A stretch of DNA of 64,000 bases from a virus. Numbering within the stretch: position 1 is the stretch's first letter; each line of letters starts with the position of its first letter. Shown here in pieces: positions 30,257 through 37,028 of the stretch. The position numbers were made by a program, and so were the translations under genes. The stretch lies in IMG/VR virus record IMGVR_UViG_3300032238_000336, positions 1 through 64,000 of that record, one strand, 5' to 3'. Under the pieces are notes generated by a model. It had not been told where the DNA came from, searched no databases, and saw nothing but the letters and a program-made list of their open reading frames with translations.

Positions 30257-32377
30257 AACCGTACCTACAATCTCAGAGAATGATACTCCGGTTCTTGTAG
30301 CAACAAATGTAAGATTGACAAAGTTAATAGACCTAGCAGGTTTAATATAAATATCTGCTTTAAATTGATTTGAATCAATAACATCTGGAGTATTATTACT
30401 TTCATCACAAACGATTTGGAAATCAGTAATACCTCTTTTTGCTTTAATATCACGGAGATATGGCTCAACGATATTTACAAAATTATTTCTTGTAATTGTA
30501 TCGTTGAATTCAAATAACTGACTTCTTGCTACTCTTCCAATTTGATTTTCAATAGTAAGGAATAGTCTACGAACGTTAATTCTATCAAATGCAGATACAA
30601 CATTAGAAGCTGTTTTATCCCCAAATAAAATAATTCCTTGACCTGGAGAAGCAATAACTGGATTTATTGCATTAGAGTAAAGCAAATCTCTTTGACTTTG
30701 AGATGGGTTATATGCAAGTTTAATTGCATTATTAATTACACCTCTGTTTGCTCCTGCGGGAGAATACCAAGGATACTGGACAATCGAAGTTCTAGCCATT
30801 AATCCTGCAACATCAGAATTGCAAGGAAGGTATAAAAATTGACTATTAAATCTATCGTAAGTATACTTGTGTCCACTATCAAATACAGCATAATTACTTG
30901 GAGTAATACCGGAAAAGAAATTTATAATATTTGCCGTTTGTACATTACTATCTGCAGTATTCAATACAGCTTCTTTTGGTGCAGATATAACTGCAATACA
31001 ATCTTTTCTAGTAGTTGCTATGTTGATTAATTCATTTGCCTTAGATTGACACTCTACTGAAGTAATTCCACCAGAAGGACCTGCAAGTAAGAAATCAATT
31101 TTATATTCTGCAGGATTTGAAAATACTCTATATCCAGTAACAATATCATTTAAAGTTACTCCATAGTTTCCTATTCCATTTGTATAATCAGTTCCACCTG
31201 TTAGAGAATATGATTTATTTCCAACACCAGAGAATGTAGTTCCTTGAGTTAAAGTTCCCCAATTTCCAGTATTTCCTGCCACATTAGAATATAATGTATC
31301 AAATCCAGTAGCAACTCCGTCTTCATTCTCTCCTACAAAAAGATAAGCAGAGTTTTCTGCAATATAGTTTTTATAGTAGATTTGTTGAGCAGGAGATAAC
31401 TTACCATCAATTGCTTTAGATAAATTTGGAAACTTTTCTACAATATTTCCAGCGGTTCCAGTAATTGCCCCATCATCATCAACTACTACGATATGAATTT
31501 CATCATTAGTAGAACTTCTTGCACGACCATATTCTGAAGTTCTTGGTTTTTGTGCAATAGATTTCCAATAAATTTTAGAGTTAGATAATCCTAAAGTTTG
31601 ATTATTATACCAATCAGAAGTGGTATATGAAGAAGTAGTTAATACTCCGACTCCGGAGTCATTGTTAATAGTTATACTACCGGAGTTTATAGATGTGATA
31701 GTATTTTCAGAATAATCAACAGTAACATACTCACCAGTAGAATTGCTATATTTTGAAACTATTTTTACATCAATAGAAGAAGTGCCAACTCCGGTAACGA
31801 TACCTTTCAAGAACCCGGTGTCAGTAACAACAGTTCCAACTCCAGCATATGTTGTATTAATTCCTACAGTAACTCCATACCCAACAACTATTGAACTGGT
31901 ATCAATACCACTTACAATTTGGTCTGCATATGCGTCAATAGTGCAAACTTTAAGTCCATTTGCCCAAGAACCTGGATTTCTTGAAGCATAATACCAACCA
32001 GAATAACCATCTGAATGTAAGTTATAATCAACTGCAGAGTTAATTTGTATATCAGTAGACCCACCGCCCACTGCGACATTAGAGTTAGTCAATGCTCCAG
32101 TAGAAGAACTATCGCATCTTACAACTACTAACTCCCCACCATAGCTAAGATAATTAATAGCAGATAGCCAATATTCATTTTGATTATTAGTCAAAATAGG
32201 CTTTCCAAAAATATTCAATAACTCTTGTTCAGTTCTAATACTAACAGGAGTATTTACTGGACCTTTTTGGAATGGACCACAAAGTGCCGCAACCTGAGTA
32301 TTGCCTACTGTTGTTCCCCCTACAGTTAAGTCAACTTCTCTTATATTAACTCCAGGGGACACTAAATTTACTGCCAT
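30254..32377 (-). CDS. 18: Tail sheath protein, T4 gp18-like
   Basis: The product has 707 residues (T4 has 659). The N terminus MAVNLVSPGVNIREVDLT and motifs ALCGPFQKGPVN, INYLSYGGELVVVR, DRINVRRLFLTIENQIGR and RFNSQFLYLPCNSDVAGLMA are those of contractile sheath proteins. Subunits surround the gp19 tube and contract on infection. The middle 250 residues are rich in Thr, Ser and Gly and form the variable outer domains. AGAGGTAA precedes the ATG and a perfect late box lies 37 bases upstream. Confidence 0.95.
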   Translation of the reverse strand: MAVNLVSPGVNIREVDLTVGGTTVGNTQVAALCGPFQKGPVNTPVSIRTEQELLNIFGKPILTNNQNEYWLSAINYLSYGGELVVVRCDSSSTGALTNSNVAVGGGSTDIQINSAVDYNLHSDGYSGWYYASRNPGSWANGLKVCTIDAYADQIVSGIDTSSIVVGYGVTVGINTTYAGVGTVVTDTGFLKGIVTGVGTSSIDVKIVSKYSNSTGEYVTVDYSENTITSINSGSITINNDSGVGVLTTSSYTTSDWYNNQTLGLSNSKIYWKSIAQKPRTSEYGRARSSTNDEIHIVVVDDDGAITGTAGNIVEKFPNLSKAIDGKLSPAQQIYYKNYIAENSAYLFVGENEDGVATGFDTLYSNVAGNTGNWGTLTQGTTFSGVGNKSYSLTGGTDYTNGIGNYGVTLNDIVTGYRVFSNPAEYKIDFLLAGPSGGITSVECQSKANELINIATTRKDCIAVISAPKEAVLNTADSNVQTANIINFFSGITPSNYAVFDSGHKYTYDRFNSQFLYLPCNSDVAGLMARTSIVQYPWYSPAGANRGVINNAIKLAYNPSQSQRDLLYSNAINPVIASPGQGIILFGDKTASNVVSAFDRINVRRLFLTIENQIGRVARSQLFEFNDTITRNNFVNIVEPYLRDIKAKRGITDFQIVCDESNNTPDVIDSNQFKADIYIKPARSINFVNLTFVATRTGVSFSEIVGTV

Positions 32378-32413
32378 TTGATTACCTCTTGAAGAAGTCT
32401 ATTTATCTATTGG

Positions 32414-32421
32414 TATTTATA
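32414..32421 (-). promoter_or_regulatory. Late promoter box TATAAATA for gp18-gp19
   Basis: A perfect late box lies 37 bases before gp18. A second variant (GATAAATA) lies at 32400-32407, closer to the gene. Confidence 0.72.
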
Positions 32422-32438
32422 AAAAAATAAACTTTCCT

Positions 32439-33611
32439 TTACATATAGTTCCACATATAAGAAGTGTCTTCCTTGCTATCAGCAGTAATCCAAGTATCTC
32501 CATCAGTATCGACAAAAATTTTTTCTTCTTCATTTAGTCCGTCTATTATAAAACCAAACGGTGTCATATCTTGTTCAATTTGGTCTTTCTGTTCTTCATA
32601 TATTCTTTTACGAACATCATTGTTCGTCATTTCTTTAAAATATTCTTGAACTATTAACCAAGAAAAAATTACCAAACACATTGCAAGGTCATCATTATAT
32701 CCATCATCTGCTTCAAAAGAATTATTTTTGCTGATAAATGTGGTAAGTTCACTTATAATATCATAATCTCGTATTAAGAGTTTGTCATCTTCTATAATAG
32801 TTTTAAGATTAGAACAACCTACCCGTTTTACTTGTTTAGACATTTTTATACCAAATTGTGATTTTCTTCCAGAAAACCCTTGACCCACTACTTGGCCTGC
32901 ACGACCTCTCATAGAGCACATCAGAACATTATCATACTCTAAATCCATATGAAGTTCTTTTGCTACTTGCTCTCCAATATCATTTACCTCAATTAAACAA
33001 TATGCGTTGTTATATGACTTTGCAACTTTTTCAATAACTGTTGAATATACAAACGGTTTAATTTCATTATTTCTATATTTTCCCACTACTTTATACGGAA
33101 TATTAGTTATATCAAATATTATAAATGCGTGATAATCATTTTCAGTTCCTCTAGATACATCAACAGTCATTAAATAGTTATGGTCTTCTTTAGGAGTTTC
33201 GTATACATCTAATCCTGCATTTTTAGTAATAGGTTCATCGAATATTAAAGTTTTAAGTTTTGCTGCAGTAACTAAAGTATCAATAGAACCTAAAAAGTTA
33301 CAGTTATGTGATACAATACTATTAGCATAATAGAGATTATTATTCCCTACATCTATGGGGTCATAAAGCCATATACCTTCCTCTACTATTTCATTATACA
33401 CAATTTCTTTACCATCTAATATATCACCAATTTGTAATTGTTCAGCTGTGACTTTAGATTTCCCGAAGGGGTGAGTATTTGAACACTTTATTTCTGTATT
33501 GTCATTAAATATTATCTGATGATAAAAAGGTTTATATACTTTCTGAATTCCTTTAAAATCTACAAACCCAGTTGGAGATAATATTTTATATCCAGAATTT
33601 GATTTAAACAT
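32439..33611 (-). CDS. 17b: Terminase large subunit (gp17), C-terminal half: split-intein IntC plus nuclease domain
   Basis: The product has 390 residues. Residues 1-103 are the C-terminal part of a split intein (see 33303-33611), ending SIVSHN. The C-extein starts at Cys104 (CNFLGSIDTLV) and runs 287 residues. The terminase nuclease is complete: first Asp in LMTVDVSRGTENDYHAF, Glu in CLIEVNDIG, last Asp in GYNDDLAMCL. T4 gp17 cuts the concatemer and fills the head; this half supplies the cutting activity. It must be joined to the half encoded at 34183-36054 by trans-splicing to give a continuous QEFE-CNFLG sequence. Its ATG lies inside the last codons of the endonuclease gene, so translation is coupled. 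Confidence 0.93.
   Translation of the reverse strand: MFKSNSGYKILSPTGFVDFKGIQKVYKPFYHQIIFNDNTEIKCSNTHPFGKSKVTAEQLQIGDILDGKEIVYNEIVEEGIWLYDPIDVGNNNLYYANSIVSHNCNFLGSIDTLVTAAKLKTLIFDEPITKNAGLDVYETPKEDHNYLMTVDVSRGTENDYHAFIIFDITNIPYKVVGKYRNNEIKPFVYSTVIEKVAKSYNNAYCLIEVNDIGEQVAKELHMDLEYDNVLMCSMRGRAGQVVGQGFSGRKSQFGIKMSKQVKRVGCSNLKTIIEDDKLLIRDYDIISELTTFISKNNSFEADDGYNDDLAMCLVIFSWLIVQEYFKEMTNNDVRKRIYEEQKDQIEQDMTPFGFIIDGLNEEEKIFVDTDGDTWITADSKEDTSYMWNYM
33303..33611 (-). mobile_element. IntC: 103-residue C-terminal fragment of an atypically split TerL intein
   Basis: Residues 1-103 of the downstream frame (MFKSNSGYKILSPTGFVDFK ... NTHPFG ... LYDPIDVGN ... SIVSHN) are intein blocks B to G. The block B His is in NTHPFG, and the end is the canonical His-Asn followed by Cys+1. 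The start MFKSN and the order of motifs match my memory of the IntC of the Ace Lake AceL-TerL intein, which is also about 104 residues with an N-fragment of about 25. Most split inteins divide instead near the C-terminal end, so this early break is the rare class. Confidence 0.9.
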
Positions 33612-34173
33612 GGTTCCAAGTCTTCCTCTCTATAACTTGTCTGATATTTTGAGGTGTTACTCCATATACTTCAGAATATTTAATAGAAAATAATTGTTCG
33701 TATGACATAATTTTTCCATTTTTCATCTTTTTTCCTACCCCATTTATTTTAATTTTCTGGTCATATAACTGCCTAAGACATATTACGATGGAAGCATCTA
33801 ATTTGGTCGGTCTCCAAACTTTACCTTTCCTAATATTACTAAAATGAGTAATAGTCTCTTCATTAAAGCACCCAGATTTATCTTTATTCCATGGAGTATA
33901 TCCTTTTTTTACTCCACCAATACCCTTCCTACTATATGATTCAAATCCCTCTCCACCTGGAGACCTATTCCATCCATCAGAATATGTATTATATTCTGAA
34001 ATAAATTCTATTTCTTTTAATTTAGCAATATTTTTATCTTCTGTTGAAAATATAATTTTAAATTCATGTAAATCTTTAGTATTTTTATGAGCACATCTTC
34101 TCTTATTTGGATTAATTGTTTGTCCAATATATTTAATTATATTATCTTGTTTCAAAGCGTAAATATAGTACAT
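33604..34173 (-). CDS. Free-standing GIY-YIG homing endonuclease within the split terminase gene
   Basis: The product has 189 residues. The GIY-YIG module has YYIYALKQDN and KYIGQT (residues 2-19), Arg25/26 in NPNKRRCAHK and a candidate catalytic Glu at 54 or 56 in LKEIEFISEYN. The C-terminal part (WNRSPGGEGFES, KKGYTPWNKDKSG, NIRKGKVWRP) looks like NUMOD3-type DNA-binding repeats. It lies exactly between IntN and IntC, starts 9 bases after the IntN stop and overlaps the IntC start by 8 bases. Homing would copy the endonuclease, and perhaps the split itself, into uninterrupted terminase genes. All catalytic residues appear present, so it is probably active. Confidence 0.9.
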   Translation of the reverse strand: MYYIYALKQDNIIKYIGQTINPNKRRCAHKNTKDLHEFKIIFSTEDKNIAKLKEIEFISEYNTYSDGWNRSPGGEGFESYSRKGIGGVKKGYTPWNKDKSGCFNEETITHFSNIRKGKVWRPTKLDASIVICLRQLYDQKIKINGVGKKMKNGKIMSYEQLFSIKYSEVYGVTPQNIRQVIERKTWNHV

Positions 34174-34182
34174 AGTTTTATT

Positions 34183-36054
34183 TTATATAGAACTGTATAG
34201 TTCTTCAAGTGTAATATTTTTTTCAATTCCATCCTTTAATATAGTAACCAAAGTATCTCCACCCAAACATTCAAATTCCTGTTCAAACTGTTCTTTTGAT
34301 GTGTTTGCAATCGTCTGTTCTTTCCACTTTGCATCCCTTCCTGGAACTTCAGACCAATGCACCTCAGTGGGAACGTATTCATTTTTACCTCGTTCTGCAT
34401 TTACCCACATCTTATAAAACATATTCATACCCTTGGGGGTAGAAATGATTATAACTTTTGTATTCTTACCTGAAGTAATTGTAGGATATACAGAACTAAA
34501 GAAGTCCTCTGCAATATTATTTTGAATGAACGCAAATTCGTCCAATACTAGAATATTGTATGCACCACCACGAACAGCAGAAGCAGATGTAGATGCCGCA
34601 ATTATCTTTGAACCATTATCTAGTTCTAATGATGCTTTGTTCCATATTTTAACCCCGTGCTGCATCCATTTAGGAAGGTTTTCATAAGCAAGTTGAAGCT
34701 TACCTAAAATTTCTTTAGCAGTTTGAGCTTTGTTTGCAAGAATAGCAATATTTACGTTATCGTTGAATAGAATATAATGTAAAATATATGAAGTAACAGT
34801 TGTAGTATTATGAGTAGGTATAAAAGTATTTCCACACAAGAATAAATGGTCTTCTGAATCTACTTTAATACAAGCAACAGGAACACTTTCTACTTTTTCT
34901 ATTTTTTGTATGTAATGCCGTTGTTCTTGTGGTCTGGTAGATTTAGTATTATTAATAGCATTTATTTTTCGGGGCAGATTAAATACACATTTTTCAGTAG
35001 TAAAAGATACCGTATGGTAATAACACTCTTTTATTTTTTTGCATCTTACTTTAGATTTTATTCCTAACGAAGATAGTAACTCAACAAATTGTAAAATAAA
35101 CTCATAATTTTTTTGATAGAACTCAAAGGACTTTGTATGGAGTTTTACTGAACCATCAGTATCCATCAATCCACGAAGAAGTTCTAGTCTATCTTCATAG
35201 GAAGACCTTAAATAATCTAATGGTATGTGTTTATTTTGCAATAAATTATAAGATTTTAATTTTGATTGCAATTCTTTTATTTTAAACCGAATACAATTAT
35301 TATCTTTTCTCTCATACTCCACATTCATTTTAGTTTTATAATACTCATAATCTTCTTTATGAGATATAATTCTCCCATCACGAGAGTATCCATCCCCTAA
35401 CCAAACACCTAGAAGATATGGGTCAATATTTAAATTCTTTTTAGTAAAATTGCAAGGATTTGATTTATTGATATATAATGTTCCTTGAACTCCTTTACCC
35501 CTAATATTGTTGGTTTTATTTTGATATCTATCAAAAATTTCACCTGAAGTTATTACTTTTTTACCAGTTCTCCAATATGAACTATTCACTTCCCATAAAT
35601 GGTCAGAATCTGCAATAATTTCTTCTCCATTATCAAAATATAATTTATAACAATCGTGGTTATACATAGTTTCAGTTTTCAGAATTACTGAAACTGGATT
35701 TCCAGAAGGAGACATAATTTTATCCCCTTCCTTAAGGTCTCCCATAGTAGTCCACCCATCAGGAGTAGGTATCGGAGTATCTAATGCTAATGCTTTCCCA
35801 CACTGCCTAGGCATTTTACAGATATTAAATCTGTTCTTATGAAATCTTTGAACTAGTTTCTCTTGAAACTTCCTCATTTTAAAAGGAACTACACCTTCGT
35901 CAACACTTACAATCTTTACATAATTTTTACAAAAATATAAAGGGTCTTTATTGCACTTTATATACTCAGCAATTTGTTCTTTAGTAAACTCCTGCTTTGT
36001 ATTTGCTTTTTTTAGATGAGGATTACCAAGATACTGTTCAGAAGGAGGGCTCAT
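34183..36054 (-). CDS. 17a: Terminase large subunit (gp17), N-terminal half: ATPase domain with P-loop intein and terminal IntN
   Basis: The product has 623 residues in five parts. Residues 1-87 are extein up to MPRQCGK, the first half of Walker A. Residues 88-416 are an intein with endonuclease. Residues 417-595 are extein beginning TTTVTSYILHYI, with Walker B NILVLDEFAFI and the coupling motif IIISTPKG. Residues 596-623 are IntN of a second, split intein, followed by a stop. Joined to the 287-residue C-extein at 32439-33302, the mature terminase would be 87+179+287 = 553 residues, a normal length for this phage group (T4 has 610). gp17 is the motor that packages DNA through gp20. The start overlaps the upstream gene as ATGA. 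Confidence 0.93.
   Translation of the reverse strand: MSPPSEQYLGNPHLKKANTKQEFTKEQIAEYIKCNKDPLYFCKNYVKIVSVDEGVVPFKMRKFQEKLVQRFHKNRFNICKMPRQCGKALALDTPIPTPDGWTTMGDLKEGDKIMSPSGNPVSVILKTETMYNHDCYKLYFDNGEEIIADSDHLWEVNSSYWRTGKKVITSGEIFDRYQNKTNNIRGKGVQGTLYINKSNPCNFTKKNLNIDPYLLGVWLGDGYSRDGRIISHKEDYEYYKTKMNVEYERKDNNCIRFKIKELQSKLKSYNLLQNKHIPLDYLRSSYEDRLELLRGLMDTDGSVKLHTKSFEFYQKNYEFILQFVELLSSLGIKSKVRCKKIKECYYHTVSFTTEKCVFNLPRKINAINNTKSTRPQEQRHYIQKIEKVESVPVACIKVDSEDHLFLCGNTFIPTHNTTTVTSYILHYILFNDNVNIAILANKAQTAKEILGKLQLAYENLPKWMQHGVKIWNKASLELDNGSKIIAASTSASAVRGGAYNILVLDEFAFIQNNIAEDFFSSVYPTITSGKNTKVIIISTPKGMNMFYKMWVNAERGKNEYVPTEVHWSEVPGRDAKWKEQTIANTSKEQFEQEFECLGGDTLVTILKDGIEKNITLEELYSSI
34186..34269 (-). mobile_element. 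IntN: 28-residue N-terminal fragment of the split TerL intein
   Basis: After extein residues EQEFE the frame reads CLGGDTLVTILKDG and ends after 28 residues. Cys1 and the xGDTxV pattern are intein block A. The fragment is very short, like the 25-residue IntN of AceL-TerL. The extein joint E-C is restored if this IntN pairs with the IntC that ends SHN-C at 33303. Confidence 0.88.
34807..35793 (-). mobile_element. Contiguous class 3-type intein with LAGLIDADG endonuclease, inserted in the terminase P-loop
   Basis: The 329-residue intein starts ALALDTPIPTPDGW (Ala1, not Cys) and ends FIPTHN before Thr+1. It carries the WCT triplet that defines class 3 inteins: Trp154 in DHLWEV (block B), Cys395 in VACIKV (block F) and Thr414 in PTHN (block G). 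Class 3 inteins start splicing with the block F Cys rather than residue 1. Two LAGLIDADG-type motifs are visible, YLLGVWLGDGY and LLRGLMDTDGS, so a homing endonuclease is built in. Splicing restores GK-TTT in Walker A. Confidence 0.9.
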
Positions 36055-37028
36055 ATACCTGTAAATAATAATGGTTTAGTTGGGTCTTTAATTGATGGTG
36101 CATAAGAAAAGACCGTTGCATTTGGATATATTTTTCTTATCTCAAATACAACTTCATCTTTGGTAGGTCTCGATGATTTAGGGAAAAATATTTGAACTGA
36201 AAGATGTTGACCTTTCCAACTCAATAAAACAGTATAAGTTAAACCACGAGATTGTATTCTTGTATATTCTTCATCTACGTTAGTTTTTTCTGTTTTATTT
36301 CCCCAGTTTGATGCACCAACTTTACGGCATTTGACAAGTGCTCCAGATGCATATGCAGAAGGCCAAATTTTATATCTACTTTTTACTTTATGGTAACAGG
36401 CATCCTTTTCACCTTTTTTTTCTTGAATGCATTCTTCTTGTGTCACAATCTTTGCATCTCCTGACCTATTTGGATTCGGGTCTTCTCTACGTTTTTTAGC
36501 AGCTCTCTCATCTCTTTCTTCTTTACTCATAGAGGCTCGAACATCAGCATCTCTGCAATATGGTTTAGTTGTTTGTCCAGGTTGACGGGCACAAGGTTTA
36601 CCATCATATTTTCCTCCAGTTTGAACCCATCCCTTAAACCAATCTCTCAAAGAATAATCAAGATCTCTCGGAGTTTTTCCATCCAATTCTTCCTTTACAT
36701 CTTTAAACTTTTTATGTTCTTTTTTGGCAGATGCTTCCATTTTTTTCAAACGAGTATAATAATCTGGAATTTCATCAAGATGCTGTAAAGCAATATCTGT
36801 TGCTAAAACTTTATCTTTGGTATGTTCGTGCTCAATGGGAATTCCCATTTCAAGTTGATGCTTTATAAAAGAAACATCAAGACGATGTTTTTTTGCAATT
36901 TCATTAACTGTTTTATATGATTTTAATTTTGAACAATTTTTAGTTCCGTGTGATGGGCAATATTTTCCCTCACCCGATTGATTACATATTGAAGTAGCTT
37001 CCAAAATAAACGCAGTAAAACTTTTCAT
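36051..37028 (-). CDS. Candidate internal head protein with capsid-targeting-like N terminus, between gp16 and gp17
   Basis: The product has 325 residues. It starts MKSFTAFILEA, like the T4 capsid-targeting peptide MKTYQEFIAEA, with a gp21-type site (ILE/A). Then come a Cys/His-rich piece (CNQSGEGKYCPSHGTKNC), a DUF5661-like part (MGIPIEHEHTKDK ... LQHLDEIPDYYTRL) and a part with the motif SLRDWFKGWVQTGGKYDGKP. CYHKVKSRYKIWPSAYASGA follows, and a C-terminal beta-rich domain (TYTVLLSWKGQHLSVQIFFP) resembles modules found in cyanobacterial and cyanophage proteins. It overlaps the gp17 start by ATGA. A protein packaged with the DNA and injected into the host is plausible. Molecular function unknown. 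Confidence 0.7.
   Translation of the reverse strand: MKSFTAFILEATSICNQSGEGKYCPSHGTKNCSKLKSYKTVNEIAKKHRLDVSFIKHQLEMGIPIEHEHTKDKVLATDIALQHLDEIPDYYTRLKKMEASAKKEHKKFKDVKEELDGKTPRDLDYSLRDWFKGWVQTGGKYDGKPCARQPGQTTKPYCRDADVRASMSKEERDERAAKKRREDPNPNRSGDAKIVTQEECIQEKKGEKDACYHKVKSRYKIWPSAYASGALVKCRKVGASNWGNKTEKTNVDEEYTRIQSRGLTYTVLLSWKGQHLSVQIFFPKSSRPTKDEVVFEIRKIYPNATVFSYAPSIKDPTKPLLFTGI

What the first reader, a model, noticed from the sequence alone, without database searches (positions are those of the whole stretch)
33604..34173. Free-standing GIY-YIG endonuclease occupying the split point of the intein
Published fractured intein genes usually hold a different endonuclease family (Vsr-like EDxHD) as far as I know. 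Here it is a GIY-YIG enzyme with NUMOD3-like repeats and apparently intact catalytic residues. Its 5' end is 9 bases from the IntN stop and its 3' end overlaps the IntC start, so an insertion seems to have created the split while keeping expression of both halves through translational coupling.
Basis: partly seen in the sequence, partly recalled or inferred. Interest (0 to 1): 0.72.

Follow-up and report, generated by a model that had tools for sequence, protein, structure and literature searches.

The report
Nuclease gene splitting a phage intein
In a T4-like phage, a selfish DNA-cutting-enzyme gene sits exactly where an intein in the DNA-packaging motor gene is broken in two; comparison with relatives shows the three-part unit jumps between phages as one piece and how its arrival and loss can split, and apparently re-join, the intein.

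Summary
In detail: on the minus strand TerL-N+IntN (stop at 34183), 9 nt, a 189-aa GIY-YIG gene (34173-33604), then IntC+TerL-C starting at 33611 with an 8-nt overlap. The intein belongs to the known atypically split AceL-TerL/Cat class (CatC, E=7e-41). A GIY-YIG gene inside a fractured intein is already in print (AceL NrdHF) and in a GenBank note (Aeromonas phage PX29), so the arrangement is not unique.

What is added: two relatives about 91% identical in DNA have an empty site, an exact 967-bp presence/absence. Cassettes about 91% identical sit in terL exteins about 70% identical, with sharp edges. The nuclease is under purifying selection. Its leader in most relatives (77 of 86 regions) holds a copy of the terL insertion site, usually abutting a T4-type late promoter, the layout of the I-TevI autorepression operator; the IntN stop codon lies within that copy in 65 of 76. 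Relatives show a broken nuclease, nuclease-less split inteins with nuclease fossils, and contiguous inteins nested among nuclease-bearing ones.

The window's own copy has lost the site copy and the exact promoter. Cleavage, repression and splicing are untested.

The parts
34186..34269 (-). IntN, 28 aa, Cys1 (stop codon 34183-34185)
   Evidence: cassette edge fixed by the empty sites of L155/L156
34174..34182 (-). 9-nt gap before the nuclease gene; with the IntN end it reads CAGTTCTATATAAAATAAAACT-ATG, where relatives have homing-site copy + TATAAATA (lost or degenerate here)
33604..34173 (-). GIY-YIG homing endonuclease gene, 189 aa
33604..33611 (-). 8-nt overlap ATGTTTAA of nuclease 3' end and IntC start
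33303..33611 (-). IntC, 103 aa, ends SHN, followed by Cys+1
   Evidence: (PDB 6dsl CatC, E=7e-41)
33303..34269 (-). whole mobile cassette IntN + nuclease + IntC, 967 bp; absent as one block in L155 and L156
34183..36054 (-). TerL N-terminal half with LAGLIDADG intein 1 and IntN at its end
32439..33302 (-). TerL C-terminal (nuclease-domain) extein
   Evidence: Terminase_6C

Best explanation
The window holds a composite mobile element at the terL site EFE|C-N-F-L-G: an atypically split AceL-TerL/Cat-type intein with an I-TevI-like GIY-YIG homing endonuclease gene at its split point. Shown here by comparison: the 967-bp IntN-nuclease-IntC block is a discrete presence/absence unit, such blocks have been exchanged among divergent terL genes as one piece with sharp edges, and the nuclease is under purifying selection. 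Inferred: the nuclease cuts intein-less terL at the insertion site and repair copies in the whole block; the two TerL halves are joined by protein trans-splicing. Origin of the split (inferred from fossils): a nuclease gene entered the short loop after the first strands of a TerL intein together with a leader that contains a copy of its own homing site; that copy supplies the IntN stop codon, and the nuclease 3' end supplies the ribosome entry and 8-nt overlap for IntC. In most relatives the site copy abuts a T4 late promoter, so the nuclease probably represses itself by binding it, as I-TevI does. The nuclease later decays; the split stays, or is undone by a deletion. The window copy is a variant that has lost the site copy and exact promoter.
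For: Empty site: L155 and L156 (about 91% nt identity around) lack exactly 967 bp, window 34269-33303; 78 of 80 nearest TerL-C relatives are empty, one carries the cassette, one undetermined. Transfer: Spearman over 3141 pairs 0.88 IntC-nuclease against 0.52 and 0.55 with TerL-C; L022/L027 98% and 94% against 67%; cassette 91% nt, adjoining 60-nt exon windows mostly 63-83%; TerL-C alignment rejects the cassette tree (delta lnL 1247) and the nuclease alignment rejects the TerL-C tree (1911). Selection: median dN/dS 0.136, 150 of 694 eligible pairs sampled. Leader: TATAAATA within 60 nt in 80 of 83; motif TGYRARTTYYTNGG found 93 times at exon junctions, 78 in nuclease leaders, once elsewhere in 1.38 Mb counted on both strands; junction ranks first of about 3484 19-mers in 56 of 67; IntN stop overlaps the copy in 65 of 76; leader conserved about 90% where nuclease third positions are 54%. 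Decay series: broken nuclease L029, six split loci without nuclease, three contiguous, nested among nuclease-bearing rows, at least 9 changes.
Against: The window copy lacks both the site copy and an exact TATAAATA, so autorepression is not supported for this locus. The IntC alignment also rejects the nuclease-only tree (delta lnL 47, p-AU 7e-5), so parts sometimes recombine. No extended co-conversion of flanks is seen, which homing often leaves. No pre-invasion contiguous intein at this site was identified with certainty. No convincing site copy in the other nuclease families of isolated phages: VP-1, 1.255.O, K469, PX29, Providencia. Two of six nuclease-less split loci (L068, L087) keep no clear fossil. 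Nothing enzymatic was tested. Loss and regain cannot be told apart by the tree alone.
Confidence: 0.82

Rival explanations
1. The intein was already split; the nuclease gene later settled in the harmless gap between the two genes.
For: Split inteins without nuclease exist at this site (L021, L056, L068, L087, L091, L259) and in Vibrio phage EniLVp02. At site a, Delftia PhiW-14 has a split intein with no nuclease.
Against: Four of the six carry remnants of the nuclease cassette: L021, L056 and L091 keep its 3' end, L259 keeps the leader copy. All six group within nuclease-bearing sequences (some forks weak). The IntN stop codon lies in the nuclease leader in 65 of 76.
Confidence: 0.15
2. The contiguous inteins L254-L256 are the ancestral, pre-invasion state; the nuclease entered at a homing-site-like sequence already present in the intein (the Loizos-type model for introns, recalled), not the reverse.
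For: L254 carries GAGTGTGAGTT at the split point, as a pre-existing target would; three contiguous alleles exist.
Against: L254 is sister to nuclease-bearing L112 and L255/L256 group with L101; L255 and L256 retain the IntC start Met (MSKTYEVL) inside the fused protein, which only a formerly split intein needs.
Confidence: 0.2
3. The site copy in the leader is only a relic of past insertion, without regulatory function.
For: It could be a scar of invasion; the window copy does without it.
Against: It is about 90% conserved where nuclease third positions are about 54% conserved, sits against TATAAATA in nearly all, and is mostly decayed where the nuclease is gone. PMC2988022 reports the same layout, 15 of 20 nt, for I-TevI with proven repression (passages read).
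Confidence: 0.35
4. The three ORFs are an artefact (frameshift) or hide an RNA intron, so the intein is not really split.
For: Single environmental contig; GIY-YIG genes are often in group I introns.
Against: Same order in 82 distinct junctions; no Rfam match at E<=1 over 31500-37000; gap and overlap leave no room for an intron core outside the ORF.
Confidence: 0.02

Closest known systems
AceL-TerL / GOS-TerL / Cat atypically split inteins
   Same: TerL host gene, IntN 25-37 aa and IntC 104-115 aa in the review table (PMC11766414, passages); here 28 and 103 aa; CatC E=7e-41.
   Different: Here the genomic context is resolved: nuclease at the split, empty sites, fossils. The original AceL-TerL paper (Thiel 2014) was not read, so its account of the locus is unknown to me.
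AceL NrdHF split intein with GIY-YIG gene (PMC7891396, passages)
   Different: Class 3 intein, split at the usual endonuclease position (98 + 48 aa), other host gene.
Aeromonas phage PX29 gene 17A/17B (GenBank note)
   Same: Same terL site, N-intein, GIY-YIG, C-intein already annotated.
   Different: Nuclease fused in frame to IntC, SegE-like GIY-YIG, no convincing homing-site copy.
I-TevI in the T4 td intron (PMC2988022, passages)
   Same: GIY-YIG nuclease; own late promoter; homing-site-like operator upstream of the gene.
   Different: Resides in an RNA intron, not an intein; the operator there is proven; the window copy lacks it.
Dassa 2009 fractured genes with Vsr-like nuclease (recalled; paper not held)
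   Same: Free-standing nuclease gene between split-intein halves.
   Different: Nuclease family differs; split point differs (recalled).

Membership tests
AceL-TerL/Cat atypically split intein | Short IntN and long IntC on separate ORFs | tested here: met
   28 and 103 aa; published 25-37 and 104-115
AceL-TerL/Cat atypically split intein | Sequence similarity to Cat | tested here: met
   6dsl_B E=7.1e-41 over IntC
AceL-TerL/Cat atypically split intein | Cys1, block-B His, His-Asn end, Cys+1 | tested here: met
   C1 in IntN and Cys+1; H47, H102, N103 invariant in 9 of 9. Roles recalled
AceL-TerL/Cat atypically split intein | Trans-splicing activity | not testable with these tools
   needs protein
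GIY-YIG homing endonuclease | GIY-YIG motif and conserved Arg, Glu, Asn | tested here: met
   83 of 83; first motif residue is Tyr, not Gly, in the window
GIY-YIG homing endonuclease | Pfam profile above curated cut-off | tested here: not met
   window protein 18 bits against 22.6; relatives match down to 8.6e-9, so read as divergence, backed by the fold
GIY-YIG homing endonuclease | GIY-YIG fold | tested here: met
   top 11 PDB matches all GIY-YIG domains of I-TevI or UvrC, 1mk0 prob 1.00; E above 0.001
GIY-YIG homing endonuclease | NUMOD3 DNA-binding module | tested here: inconclusive
   2 of 9, best E=0.078
GIY-YIG homing endonuclease | Cleaves the empty allele | not testable with these tools
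   empty alleles exist
Vsr-like/EDxHD fractured-gene nuclease | EDxHD/PD-(D/E)XK catalytic domain | tested here: not met
   no such match for the window protein; a TnsA-like/phage endonuclease I domain does occur at the other terL site
I-TevI-type autoregulated nuclease gene | Homing-site copy at a late promoter upstream of the gene | tested here: not met
   absent in the window; present in 77 of 86 family leaders, so met at family level only
Homing mobile element | Presence/absence at one exact site in close relatives and horizontal transfer | tested here: met

The most novel reading that the evidence does not exclude
The AceL/Cat class of atypically split inteins arose when an I-TevI-like nuclease gene, carrying its own homing-site operator and late promoter, landed in the intein loop: the operator, a copy of the host gene's insertion site, supplies the stop codon that breaks the intein and at the same time represses the nuclease. 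The break is reversible: deletion of the nuclease has re-joined the intein at least twice. Split and contiguous inteins are then stages of one homing cycle.
Probability: 0.5. Interest if true: 0.82.

Novelty: new variant of a known kind. Interest (0 to 1): 0.68.

Why it matters
Where split inteins come from is an open question with practical weight, since this class underlies protein-labelling tools. Here one gene site offers nearly every stage: empty, invaded, nuclease broken, nuclease gone but split, and contiguous again. PMC6801210 (passages) argues that large in-frame insertions near the N-terminal symmetry site would clash with the exteins; a free-standing gene that breaks the intein would be a way round this (my inference). 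The shared operator layout would show that intron-borne and intein-borne nucleases reached the same self-control.

Tried and rejected
Group I intron hidden in the split: no Rfam match. Host genomes: no IntC relative in genome contigs. A search for window-nuclease relatives by single protein in viral contigs found none; the alignment query found 106 (80 kept). First AlphaFold model was poor (pLDDT 69); a deeper alignment gave 81. The homing-site copy was sought in isolated phages with other nucleases: no convincing copy; the match in Serratia lies at the cassette edge, and weak hits in phiR1-RT and HY03 lie within nuclease codons. For L254 the site-copy score alone is not significant (12 of 100 shuffles reach it); its weight comes from position and from L112. 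L021 (94/100), L056 (62/100), L091 (37/100) likewise fail that test for the leader; their fossils are at the nuclease 3' end and were judged by eye. I considered the nuclease a dead passenger: rejected by dN/dS. In one search seven loci began too close to the IntC and three had the nuclease cut by the contig end; two more had no IntC; these are left out of the decay counts. In one search two loci without exact TATAAATA (L149 and the window) were dropped before ranking, and L146 is mis-parsed. Many rows share recent ancestry, so counts are not independent events.

Full report
WHAT IS THERE. The window's terL gene, on the minus strand, is in two coding pieces. The first (34183-36054) holds the N-terminal ATPase half, an in-frame LAGLIDADG intein and, at its end, a 28-residue IntN. 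Nine bases on comes a 189-codon gene (34173-33604). Its last eight bases are the first eight of the next ORF (33611-32439), which holds a 103-residue IntC and the C-terminal half of TerL. The IntC matches the engineered consensus intein CatC at E=7e-41, so the intein is of the atypically split AceL-TerL/Cat class.

THE NUCLEASE. The window protein reaches only E=0.0037 against the Pfam GIY-YIG profile, below its cut-off, but all nine members of its alignment match, best 8.6e-9, and PHROG 314 gives 8.5e-11. The deeper AlphaFold2 model (pLDDT 81) finds the I-TevI catalytic domain first among solved structures (prob 1.00, E=0.026). Seven motif residues are identical in 83 of 83 full-length relatives out of 102 representative loci. 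NUMOD3 repeats, as claimed, are not found in the window protein.

IT IS A MOBILE UNIT. Two contigs about 91% identical to the window around terL, L155 and L156, lack exactly window 34269-33303, 967 bp, that is IntN, nuclease gene and IntC together; L155 has the LAGLIDADG intein and L156 lacks that too. Of the 80 nearest TerL-C relatives kept, 78 have the empty site. On a TerL-C tree of 165 rows the window groups with the two empty alleles at full support, and presence/absence needs at least 7 changes; the two sets were sampled differently, so this is only a lower bound for this sample. Among 3141 pairs of cassette-bearing loci, IntC and nuclease identities go together (Spearman 0.88) and follow TerL-C much less (0.52, 0.55); L022 and L027 share 98% of IntC and 94% of the nuclease but 67% of TerL-C. 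In DNA the cassette of such pairs is about 91% identical while the adjoining exon windows fall mostly to 63-83% at once on both sides. For the window itself the nearest cassettes are 77-79% identical in DNA (L005, L006) with exons mostly 57-77%. Tree tests on 67 loci reject a shared history of cassette and extein. They also show that the IntC alone rejects the nuclease tree, though far less strongly. Median dN/dS is 0.136 for the nuclease, 0.075 for IntC, 0.081 for TerL-C (150 of 694 eligible pairs, 87 for TerL-C).

A HOMING-SITE COPY IN THE LEADER. Between IntN and nuclease gene, most relatives have TGTGAGTTTTTTGGAT or a close variant followed directly by TATAAATA, the T4 late promoter consensus (recalled), 80 of 83 with the exact octamer (48 of 51 distinct; about 0.03 expected per 60-mer). 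The sequence before it reads E-C-E-F-[LF]-G, as does the terL junction into which the intein is inserted. With the 19-mer slid along each locus's own terL exons on both strands, the junction was bettered by no other place in 56 of 67 distinct loci and was in the top three in 65 (12-16 of 19 matches in all but two; ties counted as first). The degenerate motif TGYRARTTYYTNGG occurred 93 times at exon junctions, 78 times in nuclease leaders and once elsewhere in 1.38 million bases counted on both strands. The leader is about 90% conserved in pairs whose nuclease third positions are about 54% identical. PMC2988022 (passages read) describes the same layout upstream of I-TevI, 15 of 20 bases, where the nuclease binds it and represses its late promoter. 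I infer the same control here. The window itself is one of nine of 86 regions without the motif, and one of three of 83 without the octamer.

THE COPY MAKES THE SPLIT. In 65 of 76 loci the IntN stop codon overlaps the site copy. In L259, which has lost the nuclease, the leader copy remains and supplies the IntN stop (TAG) and apparently the IntC start (ATG). L091 joins IntN in frame to the last codons of the nuclease and keeps the 8-nt overlap; L021 and L056 keep the nuclease 3' end before IntC. L029 has a stop inside the nuclease and is sister to L021. Of 97 distinct loci in the last survey, 77 have a full nuclease, 1 a broken one, 6 none but remain split, 3 are contiguous, and 10 cannot be judged. 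The contiguous ones, L254-L256, lie beside nuclease-bearing L112 and L101; L255 and L256 keep the IntC start Met inside the fused intein, L254 keeps part of the site copy. I read them as re-joined; the opposite order is not excluded.

OTHER SITES AND PHAGES. Among isolated phages (81 records match the IntC; I fetched 15 regions from such hits, plus VP-1), the same terL site holds a GIY-YIG nuclease as a separate gene (Providencia PSTRCR_127, Serratia 92A1), fused to IntN (Vibrio VP-1, 1.255.O, K469) or fused to IntC (Aeromonas PX29); Vibrio EniLVp02 is split with none (K469 judged by resemblance to 1.255.O; VP-1 by tblastn and PHROGs). At the Walker B site, E. coli HY03, Yersinia phiR1-RT and E. 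coli kaaroe have a TnsA-like/phage endonuclease I nuclease between the halves, while Vibrio vB_VmeM-32 and Nitratidesulfovibrio SRB7757 have contiguous inteins.

WHAT IS KNOWN. GIY-YIG in a fractured intein gene is in print for AceL NrdHF (PMC7891396, passages) and annotated in PX29. PMC11923092 (passages) describes atypical splits with a short IntN. I found no account of a homing-site copy, late promoter or nuclease-loss series for this intein class in the listings of ten searches of the held library; Dassa 2009 and one of the TerL intein papers are not held and Thiel 2014 was not looked up by id.

VERDICT. The arrangement in the window is real and looks intact, a member of a known kind; at the level of its family it is a new variant, because the split can be traced to the nuclease leader and can be followed through loss. 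Interest 0.68.

Noticed in passing
L235 and L250 (Campylobacter phage CP30A, JX569801: 49486-50202 minus; 74590-75918 plus): TerL-N+IntN and IntC+TerL-C lie about 24 kb apart on opposite strands; the N half is annotated hypothetical. The packaging motor presumably depends on protein trans-splicing between distant genes.
   Followed up: partly
window 34804-35790: LAGLIDADG intein at Walker A begins with Ala and has a Cys near its C-terminal block, possibly class 3 (recalled motif). It is itself present in L155 and absent in L156, so one terL gene carries two separately varying inteins with unrelated nucleases.
   Followed up: partly
L248 (Delftia phage PhiW-14): The Walker A intein is split with a short IntN and no nuclease; the annotated gene 47 starts inside IntC, so the N half is missing from the annotation.
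   Followed up: no
L246 1872-4158 (Vibrio phage EniLVp02): IntN and IntC ORFs overlap by 32 nt in different frames with no nuclease between them.
   Followed up: no
L243, L244, L245: At the Walker B terL site the split intein holds a TnsA-like/phage endonuclease I-type nuclease instead; contiguous inteins occur at the same site in L240 and L241.
   Followed up: partly
window, both strands: TATAAATA occurs 12 times, 10 of them on the minus strand (84 of 100 shuffles had as many in total); one at 32414-32421 lies upstream of the tail sheath gene.
   Followed up: no
family leaders, e.g. L009, L083: TATAAATA ends 9 nt before the nuclease ATG in 45 of 80, which would give a nearly leaderless message if the T4 spacing (recalled) applies.
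   Followed up: no
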